DNA of 59,477 bases. It comes from Trueperaceae bacterium (GTDB taxonomy: Bacteria; Deinococcota; Deinococci; Deinococcales; Trueperaceae). The notes below the pieces were generated by a model, which saw only the letters and a list, made by a program, of their open reading frames with translations, did not search any database and was not told the origin of the DNA. Of the stretch, positions 9,644 to 13,006 are shown piece by piece (position 1 is the first letter of the stretch; the number at the start of each line of letters is the position of its first letter). The stretch is taken from NCBI GenBank assembly GCA_019454765.1, contig JACFNR010000013.1:1-59477 (forward strand), given 5' to 3'. Position numbers and translations under genes: made by a program.

Positions 9644-9833
9644 GATACAGAACCTCTCGAAGATCTTTCGCCCCGAACCGGATCCGTTGCATAGTCGTCG
9701 ATGCCGGCCCAGGGGTCAACGGGTGATGTTAACACACGGCGGCGAGGTCGTGGGCAGCGCCGCCGGCCGCACCGTGCCGGGCGCGACCGCAAGGGTTCGC
9801 GTAGCGGTCGCAGACGGCTCGGCGCCGACCCAC

Positions 9834-9839
9834 TACAAT
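9834..9839 (+). promoter_or_regulatory. Candidate -10 box (TACAAT) for the STAND ATPase gene
   Basis: TACAAT is the best -10 match in the divergent 9644-9889 gap; it would give a leader of roughly 40 nt, ending in a ribosome binding site (GGAG) before ATG 9890. No good -35 is visible. Confidence 0.35.
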
Positions 9840-9889
9840 GACCGACGACCCCCTCGAGGTGCGCCGGAACCATGGGTCTCGGAGAGCAG

Positions 9890-12800
9890 ATGGCAACGAT
9901 CATCGCCGTGATCACCGCGGTCGGCGTGGTGGTCACCATACTTGCCAACCTGACCAACATCGCGCGCTTCGTGCACGAGAGGCGCGAGCGGCGCGGCTCG
10001 CCTCCGGGCGTGCCGGTAGCGATGGCGGCCGGTGCGAGCGGTGGCGCGGCCTTGGCGCTCACTCCTCCGCGGCCGCCGCCCTCCGCCATCCTCACGCCGG
10101 ACCAACGCATCAGGGTGTTCGTCTCCTCCACGCTGCAAGAACTCGCCACCGAGCGCGCGCTCGTCAGGAGCGCCATCGAGGACCTTCACCTCACGCCGGT
10201 CATGTTCGAGCTCGGGGCGCGGGCCCACCCGCCCGCGGACCTCTACCGCGCCTACCTGGCCCAGAGCGACGTGTTCGTGGGGATCTACGGCGAGAGCTAC
10301 GGCTGGGTGGCCCCGGGCGCTAACGTCAGCGGCCTGGAGGACGAGTACTTGTCGTCCTCCGCGCTCCCGAGCCTCATCTACGTGAAGGCGCCCGCGCCCC
10401 AGCGCGACGAGCGGCTGGAGGCGCTGCTCGCGCGGGTGAGGGACGAGGCGCGCGCTTCCTACCGTCGCTACTCGACGCCGCAGGAGCTGGCCGAGCTGGT
10501 GAGCGAGGACCTGGCCGTGCTCCTGACCGAACGGTTCCATCGGCCCGCGGCCGGCGCCGACGGGGACGACCCCACGGCGGAGCCCGCCCCGCGGGACTGG
10601 CAGGCAGGGGCGTTCGACGCGTTCGTGGGCCCCCCGACGAGCGGCGTGGTCGAACAGGTGCCGCCACTGCCGCTGGCGCCCCTGCCACGACCGCTCACCT
10701 CCTTCGTCGGCCGCGCCGACAGCCTGCGCCGGCTCTCCGAACTCGTGCTACTGCCGGACACGCGCCTCGTCACCCTGCACGGTCCCGGCGGCATCGGCAA
10801 GAGCCGCCTGGCGCTCGAGGCGGCGCGAGGCATGAAGGACGCCTTCCGTGACGGCGTCGCTTTCGTGTCGCTCGACTCGGTGCGCGACCCGGCGCTCGTC
10901 CCCACCGAGATCGCCTTCGCCGTCGGCCTCTACGAGACCGCCACCTCGGGGCCGGTGGAGAGGCTCGTCAGCGTGCTCGGCCGCCGCGAACTCCTCCTGG
11001 TGCTCGACAACTTCGAGGGCCTGTTGACCGCGGTGCCGCACGTGACGCGCCTCCTGGCGGCGGCGCCCGGGCTCAAGGTGATGGTCACGTCGCGCACGCT
11101 CCTGCGCCTGAGCGGCGAGGTCTCCTTCCCGGTGCCGCCCATGAACCTGCCGGAGGCCGACATGCCGCTGACGCCGGCGGCGGCTCTCGAGTTCGGCGCC
11201 GTGAAGCTCTTCGTGGAGCGCGTTAGGGCGGTGCTCCCCGCCTTCGAACTGGACGACGAGGCCGTCGCCTCCGTCGTCAACGTGTGCCGGCGTCTCGACG
11301 GGCTGCCCCTCTCCATCGAGCTCGCCGCCGCGCGGCTGGGAACCATGTCGGTGAGCGCGCTGGAGGAGCGGATGACGCAGCTCCTGCCGCTCTTGACCGG
11401 CGGCCCGCGCGACGCCCCCGCCCGCCAACGCACGTTGCGCGCGACGATCGCCTGGTCCTACGACCTGCTCGACAGGGAGCAACGCGTGCTGTTCGTGCAC
11501 ATGGCGGTCTTCGAGGGGAGCGCCGACCTGGAGTCGATCGAGGAGGTGCTGGGACCGAAGCCCGGCATCCTCGACGGGCTGCGGGCGCTGGTGGACGCCA
11601 GCCTGTTGACGCGCCTCGACCCCGACGCGGGTCGGCTCGGCCTGCTCGAGACGCTGCGCGAGTTCGCCCGCGAGGAGCTGACGAAGGACCCGCTCCTCCC
11701 CGAGCTCGAGCGCAGACACGCGCACCACTTCCTCGAGCTGGTGGCGGCGGTGCCGGACGCCCTTCGTGGCCCCGAGCAGCAGCGGTGGCTGGAGCGCCTG
11801 CGGCACGACGAGGGCAACCTCCGCAACGCCTTCGGATGGTTCGTGAAGCAGGGCGACGCCGTCAGCGCCACCACCATGGCCGTCAGGCTGCGGCCCTACT
11901 GGCAGCGCGTCGGCGCGCTCGAGGAGGGGCGCAGGCGCCTGGCGCAGGCGGCCGCCGTGCCCGGCGAGGTCGACGATGGGTTGCGAGCACGGGCGGCCCT
12001 CGCCGACGGTGTGCTCGCGTGGCGCCAGGGCGACCTCGCCACGGCGGGCACCGTGCTGGAGCGGGCCCTGGCGCTGGCCCAGGGGGTGGCCGACGTCGTG
12101 ACGGTGACGACGGCGCAGCGGGTGCTGGGGGCGCTCGCTCAGAACCACGCCGATTACCTCAAGGCCACCAGGCTGCTCGAGGCGGGCGCCGCGGGCGCCA
12201 AGGCGCGCGGCGACGTTGAGGCGGTCGCCAGCACCTACCTCAGCCTCGGCAACGTCGCGCTCGACCAGGGCCGTAGCGAGGTCGCCGTCGGCTACTACCA
12301 GGACAGCCTGCAGCTCGCCCGGCGCACCGGCGACACGTGGGGGACCGCCATGGCGCTCGACAACCTGAGCGTGGCCGCCTGGTACGCCGGCGACCTTGCC
12401 ACGGCCGACCGCCTGGGCCGGGAGGCGCTAGCGCTCTATCAGGAGCTCGTCCTGCCGAGCGGCTGCGCCAACATCTGGCACCGGGACGCCCTGGTCGCTT
12501 ACGCGCGCGGTGACCTCGCCACGGCCGAAGCGCAGGGGCGCGTGGCGCTGCGGGTGCGGCGGGCGCAGGGCGAGGCGCGCGGCGCGGCGTTCGTGATCTA
12601 CGACCTGGCGCGGGTTGCCCTGGCCAGGGGAGACGCTGCCGGCGCCGCCACGCTCCTGGCCGAGGGTCTCGAGCTGGCCCTGCCGCAGCAGGCGCCGGTC
12701 CTCGACCTCCTGTACGTGCAGGGGACGGCCGCCTACCTGGTTCAGATGGAGCGCTTCGACGAGGCCTACGTGCTGCTACGCGTGGTCGACGCCTGGCGCG

Positions 12801-13006
12801 AGCGGATCGGGGTGCCCGTCGCGCCGGTCAACCGCCGCGAGGTCGAGCGCCTCAAGCAGCAGGTCGAGCGCGTGATGACGCGCAAGGAGCGCAAGGAGCG
12901 CATCGGCCTGGAGGCCATGGCGCGCCAGCTGACCTACGAGGAGGCCGTCGAGCGGGCCACCTACGCGCTGGGGATCTCGGGCTACGGGCGGACGGCCAAG
13001 GCGTGA
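9890..13006 (+). CDS. Membrane-anchored DUF4062 / STAND (NB-ARC-type) ATPase / TPR protein
   Basis: The 1038-residue protein has one N-terminal membrane segment (IIAVITAVGVVVTILANL) and then a DUF4062 domain (residues ~73-190: RVFVSSTLQELATERALV, SDVFVGIYGESYGW, SGLEDEY). A STAND/AP-ATPase follows, with P-loop GPGGIGKS at ~298-305, Walker B LLLVLDNFEG, MVTSRT and GLPLSIELAAARL, then a winged helix (~510-600) and about ten TPR-like repeats to ~950. DUF4062 is a TIR-like fold found next to NACHT/NB-ARC ATPases. STAND proteins oligomerise on sensing a ligand, and many are signalling or defence switches; the role here is unknown. ATG 9890 is preferred (GGAG, 5 nt before); ATG 9872 is possible. 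No partner genes are adjacent. Confidence 0.85.
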   Translation: MATIIAVITAVGVVVTILANLTNIARFVHERRERRGSPPGVPVAMAAGASGGAALALTPPRPPPSAILTPDQRIRVFVSSTLQELATERALVRSAIEDLHLTPVMFELGARAHPPADLYRAYLAQSDVFVGIYGESYGWVAPGANVSGLEDEYLSSSALPSLIYVKAPAPQRDERLEALLARVRDEARASYRRYSTPQELAELVSEDLAVLLTERFHRPAAGADGDDPTAEPAPRDWQAGAFDAFVGPPTSGVVEQVPPLPLAPLPRPLTSFVGRADSLRRLSELVLLPDTRLVTLHGPGGIGKSRLALEAARGMKDAFRDGVAFVSLDSVRDPALVPTEIAFAVGLYETATSGPVERLVSVLGRRELLLVLDNFEGLLTAVPHVTRLLAAAPGLKVMVTSRTLLRLSGEVSFPVPPMNLPEADMPLTPAAALEFGAVKLFVERVRAVLPAFELDDEAVASVVNVCRRLDGLPLSIELAAARLGTMSVSALEERMTQLLPLLTGGPRDAPARQRTLRATIAWSYDLLDREQRVLFVHMAVFEGSADLESIEEVLGPKPGILDGLRALVDASLLTRLDPDAGRLGLLETLREFAREELTKDPLLPELERRHAHHFLELVAAVPDALRGPEQQRWLERLRHDEGNLRNAFGWFVKQGDAVSATTMAVRLRPYWQRVGALEEGRRRLAQAAAVPGEVDDGLRARAALADGVLAWRQGDLATAGTVLERALALAQGVADVVTVTTAQRVLGALAQNHADYLKATRLLEAGAAGAKARGDVEAVASTYLSLGNVALDQGRSEVAVGYYQDSLQLARRTGDTWGTAMALDNLSVAAWYAGDLATADRLGREALALYQELVLPSGCANIWHRDALVAYARGDLATAEAQGRVALRVRRAQGEARGAAFVIYDLARVALARGDAAGAATLLAEGLELALPQQAPVLDLLYVQGTAAYLVQMERFDEAYVLLRVVDAWRERIGVPVAPVNRREVERLKQQVERVMTRKERKERIGLEAMARQLTYEEAVERATYALGISGYGRTAKA

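What the first reader, a model, noticed from the sequence alone, without database searches (positions are those of the whole stretch)
9890..13006. Membrane-tethered DUF4062-STAND ATPase-TPR protein
A single protein joins an N-terminal membrane helix, a TIR-like DUF4062 domain, an NB-ARC-type ATPase with intact P-loop and Walker B, and a long TPR sensor. This is the architecture of STAND immune switches (effector, oligomerising ATPase, sensor), but with a membrane anchor and in a housekeeping neighbourhood beside rpsO. It could be a signalling switch or an anti-phage receptor not yet described.
Basis: partly seen in the sequence, partly recalled or inferred. Interest (0 to 1): 0.6.

Follow-up and report, generated by a model that had tools for sequence, protein, structure and literature searches.

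The report
Membrane-anchored NADase-type STAND receptor gene
A Trueperaceae bacterium (Deinococcota) carries, in a spot where its closest relatives have nothing, a gene for a membrane-anchored sensor protein built like immune receptors: a probable NAD-destroying domain, a molecular switch and a ligand-sensing tail; the parts are known from phage defence and human vaults, but this membrane-tethered bacterial combination appears undescribed.

Summary
In detail: one intact gene (best start 9890, stop 13006; 1038 aa) encodes an N-terminal membrane helix, DUF4062, an NB-ARC-type STAND ATPase with intact P-loop and Walker B, and a TPR superhelix. DUF4062 is no longer of unknown function: a 2026 preprint (PMC13174449) shows it is a TIR-like NADase in phage defence (Swarozyc) and in TEP1. 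A profile of this family matches the solved Swarozyc protein (E 4e-6) and keeps its S-x-x-E-x-E-[YF] motif. The gene is an accessory insertion: rpsO and the S9 peptidase are direct neighbours in five congeners, and only 11 of 111 searched genomes of the phylum have DUF4062. Relatives are widespread, with conserved effectors and divergent sensors. Five of seven intact Trueperaceae copies carry the membrane helix, which is under purifying selection; no other relative examined has it. Most likely it is a membrane-tethered STAND immune receptor that depletes NAD+ after TPR sensing; trigger, NADase activity and antiphage role are inferred, and no defence-gene neighbour was seen. Verdict: new variant of a known kind. 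By-product: in relatives' tandem arrays (some beside rpoB), only the DUF4062 segment is homogenised by gene conversion.

The parts
9834..9839 (+). TACAAT, a possible -10 element of the gene's own promoter (weak; no -35 match)
   Evidence: read from sequence; the consensus scan found no promoter
9881..9886 (+). GGAGAG, probable ribosome-binding site for the ATG at 9890
   Evidence: sequence; the homologue L041 starts at the same residue
9890..13006 (+). Membrane-anchored DUF4062-NB-ARC-TPR (STAND) protein, 1038 aa
9893..9994 (+). N-terminal membrane helix (residues 2-35; hydrophobic core 3-25, then basic RFVHERRERR, predicting N-out/C-in)
   Evidence: hydropathy; predicted helix 2-35; same kind of helix in four other Trueperaceae proteins; lowest dN of any part against L041 (0.21, dS 0.93)
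9995..10096 (+). Disordered Ala/Pro-rich linker (residues 36-69), variable (dN 0.76)
10112..10537 (+). DUF4062, TIR-like NADase-type effector domain (residues 75-216)
   Evidence: Pfam; profile match to solved KpSwz and TEP1 DUF4062; predicted alternating beta-alpha topology
10328..10348 (+). S-G-L-E150-D-E152-Y motif; E152 (10343-10345) is the likely catalytic Glu, counterpart of KpSwz E97; E150 not excluded
   Evidence: PMC13174449
10697..11479 (+). NB-ARC-type STAND ATPase (residues about 270-530)
   Evidence: Pfam; Foldseek to 6mfv, RPP1, Apaf-1, MalT
10781..10804 (+). P-loop GPGGIGKS (residues 298-305)
10991..11017 (+). Walker B LLLVLDNFE (residues 368-376)
11480..11764 (+). Winged-helix/ARC2-like region (residues 531-625)
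   Evidence: predicted structure
11810..12967 (+). TPR superhelix, presumed sensor (residues about 641-1026)
   Evidence: Pfam TPR_12 and others; helical pairs, pLDDT mostly above 90
9644..9740 (-). rpsO promoter/leader, conserved in congeners and left intact by the insertion

Best explanation
The gene encodes a single-protein immune receptor of the STAND class fixed to the inner face of the cytoplasmic membrane. At rest the NB-ARC switch is closed and the DUF4062 domains are kept apart. When the TPR superhelix binds its trigger (probably a phage protein), the switch opens with nucleotide exchange and the proteins oligomerise. The clustered DUF4062 domains become active NADases (E152) that deplete NAD+ and abort the infection. 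The membrane helix holds receptor and effector at the membrane, which may favour clustering in the plane or place the sensor where phage entry or assembly happens. Shown here: the architecture, intact motifs, homology to a proven NADase, the helix under purifying selection, and accessory status. Inferred: NADase activity, oligomerisation, trigger, antiphage role, and the reason for tethering.
For: DUF4062 over Pfam's cut-off. A profile of 36 family members finds the solved KpSwz Swarozyc (E 4.2e-6) and TEP1 TIR (E 0.0019), the only PDB matches with E up to 10. KpSwz and TEP1 are NADases that need a conserved Glu (PMC13174449). The spacing S-x-x-E-x-E-[YF] is the same in natural Swarozyc-like proteins and in this family, with the Glu kept in 105 of 106 relatives. 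STAND fold: Foldseek hits STAND-TPR 6mfv (2e-13), TIR-NLR RPP1, Apaf-1 and MalT. Conserved effector and divergent sensor: mean pairwise identity DUF4062 67%, NB-ARC 49%, winged helix 39%, TPR 29% over 96 relatives. Patchy: 11 of 111 genomes of the phylum have DUF4062, 0 of 5 congeners, with the empty site shown. The helix is conserved.
Against: No defence gene was seen next to this gene or its Trueperales relatives; neighbours are housekeeping or unknown genes. This subfamily was not found on phages or viral contigs, and plasmids gave only distant DUF4062. Composition is native, so recent transfer is not shown. Three human DUF4062-NACHT proteins lacked NADase activity when assayed (PMC13174449), so the domain can be inactive. 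The fold search with the N-terminal model alone hit generic Rossmann-like folds, not TIR. The trigger is unknown.
Confidence: 0.55

Rival explanations
1. A membrane-tethered signalling or stress switch, not an antiphage receptor: the TPR senses an endogenous ligand or partner and DUF4062 makes ADP-ribose/nicotinamide or lowers NAD+ as a regulated signal, as MalT- and AfsR-type NB-ARC-TPR proteins sense metabolic state.
For: The NB-ARC-TPR half resembles AfsR/HaaT and MalT. The gene and its relatives sit beside housekeeping genes: rpsO here, fabF in three Trueperaceae, rpoB in eight Microbacterium loci. Not found on phages or viral contigs.
Against: Patchy presence, absence in congeners, fast-diverging TPR sensors and effector homogenisation in arrays suit a receptor under changing selection better than a fixed regulator. 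No DNA-binding domain was found.
Confidence: 0.25
2. A self/non-self or contact-dependent cell-death receptor (allorecognition, like fungal NLRs), triggered at the membrane by other strains or toxins rather than by phage.
For: Membrane location; array diversification with a constant effector; fungal STAND proteins with TPR or WD repeats do this (discussed in PMC10907252).
Against: The only tested bacterial DUF4062 system is antiphage (PMC13174449). No direct evidence here.
Confidence: 0.12
3. DUF4062 is catalytically dead here and serves only as an oligomerisation or adaptor domain.
For: Human NWD1, NWD2 and NPHP3 carry DUF4062-NACHT but showed no NADase activity (PMC13174449).
Against: Both Glu residues of the motif and the surrounding residues are nearly invariant over several phyla.
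Confidence: 0.15

Closest known systems
Swarozyc (KpSwz), DUF4062 antiphage NADase (PMC13174449)
   Same: Homologous DUF4062 with the same S-x-x-E-x-E-[YF] motif; single-gene effector plus sensor; patchy spread
   Different: Swarozyc has a short stalk and a C-terminal HTH/winged auxiliary domain that binds the phage portal; here an NB-ARC ATPase and TPRs take its place and a membrane helix is added
TEP1 / NPHP3 / NWD1 / NWD2 (eukaryotic DUF4062-NACHT)
   Same: DUF4062 immediately before a STAND ATPase, with repeats at the C-terminus
   Different: NACHT rather than NB-ARC, WD40 in several, eukaryotic; no membrane helix is described for them in that paper
Avs and bNACHT bacterial STAND immune receptors
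   Same: N-terminal effector, STAND switch, C-terminal (often TPR) sensor
   Different: Different effector families; no PADLOC Avs model matches
Plant TIR-NLRs (RPP1)
   Same: TIR-type NADase effector, NB-ARC, repeat sensor; structural similarity
   Different: LRR sensor and different TIR family
AfsR / MalT NB-ARC-TPR regulators
   Same: NB-ARC-TPR half
   Different: No DNA-binding domain here; DUF4062 and a membrane helix instead

Membership tests
DUF4062 TIR-like NADases | Match to the DUF4062 profile over the curated cut-off | tested here: met
   66.3 bits against 24.7
DUF4062 TIR-like NADases | Homology to a member with proven NADase activity | tested here: met
   Family profile against PDB: KpSwz E 4.2e-6, TEP1 TIR E 0.0019
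DUF4062 TIR-like NADases | Conserved catalytic Glu | tested here: met
   S-x-x-E-x-E-[YF] kept; E152 in 105/106, E150 in 103/106. Aligners gap this spot, so E150 remains an alternative
DUF4062 TIR-like NADases | TIR-like fold | tested here: inconclusive
   Predicted beta-alpha x5 topology, but Foldseek found no TIR with the N-terminal model and hhalign to seven TIR_2 sequences failed
DUF4062 TIR-like NADases | NAD+ hydrolysis | not testable with these tools
   Needs a biochemical assay
Swarozyc | C-terminal HTH/winged auxiliary (portal-binding) domain | tested here: not met
   The C-terminus is NB-ARC and TPR
STAND NTPases (NB-ARC) | NB-ARC profile, P-loop, Walker B | tested here: met
   24.5 bits against 23.5; motifs conserved
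STAND NTPases (NB-ARC) | STAND fold followed by a repeat superhelix | tested here: met
   Full-length model, Foldseek 6mfv E 2.1e-13, RPP1, Apaf-1, MalT
STAND NTPases (NB-ARC) | Nucleotide-driven oligomerisation | not testable with these tools
   Needs biochemistry
Avs (AVAST) receptors | Match to an Avs model | tested here: not met
   PADLOC gives only a generic TPR model
AfsR/MalT-type regulators | DNA-binding domain / equivalog score | tested here: not met
   No DNA-binding domain in Pfam; AfsR model 58 bits against 1430
Membrane-anchored proteins | N-terminal transmembrane helix conserved in orthologues | tested here: met
   Hydropathy; five of seven intact Trueperaceae proteins; dN 0.21 against dS 0.93. 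Membrane insertion itself not tested

The most novel reading that the evidence does not exclude
A bacterial membrane-tethered 'resistosome': a DUF4062-NADase STAND receptor whose activation takes place on the inner membrane. It belongs to a large, undescribed prokaryotic family of DUF4062-NB-ARC-TPR receptors that diversify their sensors while gene conversion keeps the effector uniform in tandem arrays.
Probability: 0.4. Interest if true: 0.7.

Novelty: new variant of a known kind. Interest (0 to 1): 0.5.

Why it matters
It links the newly described DUF4062 NADases (Swarozyc, TEP1) to STAND-type receptors in bacteria: the bacterial counterpart of TEP1's effector-ATPase-repeat layout, here fixed to a membrane. 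If active, it gives a simple single-gene system to test how a STAND switch turns on a TIR-like NADase, and whether membrane tethering matters. The family's arrays, with a homogenised effector and diverging sensors, offer a natural experiment in receptor evolution.

Tried and rejected
Fold search with the N-terminal model alone: only generic Rossmann/P-loop folds, no TIR. Profile comparison of DUF4062 with seven TIR_2 sequences of the phylum: no signal, profiles too shallow. Foreign composition: rejected, codon usage is the closest of all window genes tested to the local norm. Clear promoter or terminator: none above chance. Phage or viral carriage: no match; plasmids hold only distant DUF4062. 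A first reading that E150 equals KpSwz E97 was dropped: the deposited chain shows Ala where natural homologues have Glu (S+5), so E97 most likely corresponds to E152, although HMMER and MAFFT place a gap there. Housekeeping role tied to rpsO: rejected, since the rpsO leader is conserved and the gene is absent at the site in congeners.

Full report
Observation. The ORF at 9872-13006 (+) is intact. The ATG at 9890 is preferred: GGAGAG lies at 9881-9886, and the closest homologue (L041, genome G009, 56% identical) starts at the aligned residue. The protein has 1038 aa. Numbers below use this start; numbers from the 1044-aa reading are 6 higher. Pfam finds DUF4062, NB-ARC and TPRs over cut-off. 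AlphaFold2 gives a fairly confident full-length model (pLDDT 80): helix 2-35, a disordered linker, an alternating beta-alpha domain, the NB-ARC module, a winged-helix region and a long TPR superhelix. Foldseek's best PDB match is a STAND-TPR protein (6mfv), followed by TIR-NLR RPP1, Apaf-1 and MalT.

Membrane helix. Residues 7-25 of the 1044-aa reading reach a hydropathy mean of 2.6 and are followed by RFVHERRERR, which predicts the N-terminus outside and the rest in the cytoplasm (positive-inside rule, established knowledge). Four other Trueperaceae proteins have the same kind of helix at the same place, with sequences that differ but keep the character (ILANLTNIARF, ILANLTSVAGF, IAVNATTVTRF). 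Two intact Trueperaceae copies (G010, the second G009 copy) and the three Deinococcales copies lack it. None of the other relatives from the genome scan showed a helix of this hydrophobicity before DUF4062. Against L041 the helix has the lowest dN of all parts (0.21, dS 0.93), while the linker right behind it has dN 0.76. A tree puts the anchored proteins in two well-supported branches; one origin of the helix is not ruled out.

Effector. A search of the literature for DUF4062 found a May 2026 preprint (PMC13174449): DUF4062 is a family of TIR-like NADases, forms the antiphage system Swarozyc (activated by the phage portal) and is active in human TEP1. A profile of 36 members of the present family finds exactly these two solved proteins in the PDB and nothing else with E up to 10: KpSwz (E 4.2e-6) and TEP1 TIR (E 0.0019). 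The solved KpSwz chain reads SFTEKAFDYA. Natural homologues on plasmids read S/G-Y-T-E-[KM]-E-[FY]-D-Y-A, so the Ala is most likely the E97A mutation used for the structure (inference). The family here reads S-G-L-E150-D-E152-Y with the same spacing, so E152 is the likely catalytic residue. Aligners place a gap nearby, so E150 is not excluded. E152 is kept in 105 and E150 in 103 of 106 relatives.

Genomic setting. The own genome has one DUF4062. The window species lies in Trueperaceae: named records of its homologues in the same family (G109, G029 and G026) are Trueperaceae MAGs. DUF4062 occurs in 11 of 111 searched genomes of the phylum and in none of five congeners. In congeners G001-G005 and in G009 the S9 peptidase and rpsO are direct neighbours with roughly 110-240 bp between them, whereas the window has 3.4 kb there. 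The rpsO promoter/leader is conserved on the rpsO side of the insertion, so rpsO keeps its own leader. The closest homologue, in G009, lies on a different contig from that genome's rpsO. Codon usage is fully native, so the gene is accessory but not visibly foreign. Neighbours of the Trueperales homologues are housekeeping or unknown genes; no defence island was seen.

Family. A scan of 84,980 species genomes finds this DUF4062-NB-ARC-TPR type in Microbacteriaceae and other Actinomycetota, Chloroflexota, Bacteroidota, Ignavibacteriota, Pseudomonadota, Myxococcota and a Thorarchaeota MAG; 79 loci were kept, the best of 154 matches. Over 96 full-length relatives, mean pairwise identity falls from effector to sensor: DUF4062 67%, NB-ARC 49%, winged helix 39%, TPR 29%. 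This gradient is usual for STAND immune receptors but is not proof. 18 of the 79 loci hold 2-4 copies, and eight Microbacterium loci lie next to rpoB. In four arrays (three Microbacterium species, one Dehalococcoidia MAG) a 340-480 bp tract that is the DUF4062 domain is 99-99.8% identical between neighbouring copies, while the rest is about 60-80%. Between M. gallinarum and M. flavescens, same-position copies match better outside DUF4062 (86-91%) than copies in one genome do (74-75%), but DUF4062 itself is more alike within a genome (97-99.8%) than between them (91-93%). That is gene conversion limited to the effector domain.

Mechanism and rivals. The best-supported reading is a membrane-tethered STAND receptor with an NADase effector. 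The steps shown are architecture, homology, motif conservation, constraint on the helix and accessory status. The steps inferred are NADase activity, oligomerisation, trigger, antiphage function and the purpose of the anchor. A regulatory switch with an endogenous ligand, a dead DUF4062 and an allorecognition receptor remain possible, in that order. The lack of defence neighbours and of phage carriage keeps the antiphage claim moderate. I found no description of a membrane-anchored or NB-ARC-TPR bacterial DUF4062 protein in the main text of PMC13174449 or in the other searches; its supplement was not readable here, so an architecture figure there could already list the soluble form.

Noticed in passing
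L104, L107, L120 (Microbacterium), L083 (Dehalococcoidia MAG): Tandem DUF4062-STAND genes share a 340-480 bp DUF4062 tract at 99-99.8% DNA identity while NB-ARC and TPR parts are about 60-80%: gene conversion limited to the effector domain.
   Followed up: yes
L101, L103, L104, L107, L115, L120, L137, L140: In eight Microbacterium loci the DUF4062-STAND genes (1-4 copies) lie directly beside rpoB, a fixed chromosomal site for a variable receptor array.
   Followed up: partly
L049:439-5450; L048:6420-11423; L047:6369-11366: In three Deinococcales genomes a soluble DUF4062-STAND gene follows two paralogous 345-350 aa polytopic membrane proteins (34-35% identical to each other) with no Pfam match: membrane parts encoded in trans where Trueperaceae have a helix in cis.
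   Followed up: partly
L050:5053-7029 (G035:C347): A Trueperaceae copy of the gene is broken into different reading frames, either a decayed gene or an assembly error.
   Followed up: no
L042, L043, L044: In three Trueperaceae genomes of two genera the anchored gene lies next to fabF of the fatty-acid synthesis cluster, another housekeeping neighbour.
   Followed up: partly
L196 (Acinetobacter junii plasmid pAJ_068-3): A Swarozyc-like DUF4062 gene lies just downstream of a reverse transcriptase family gene on a small mobilizable plasmid.
   Followed up: no
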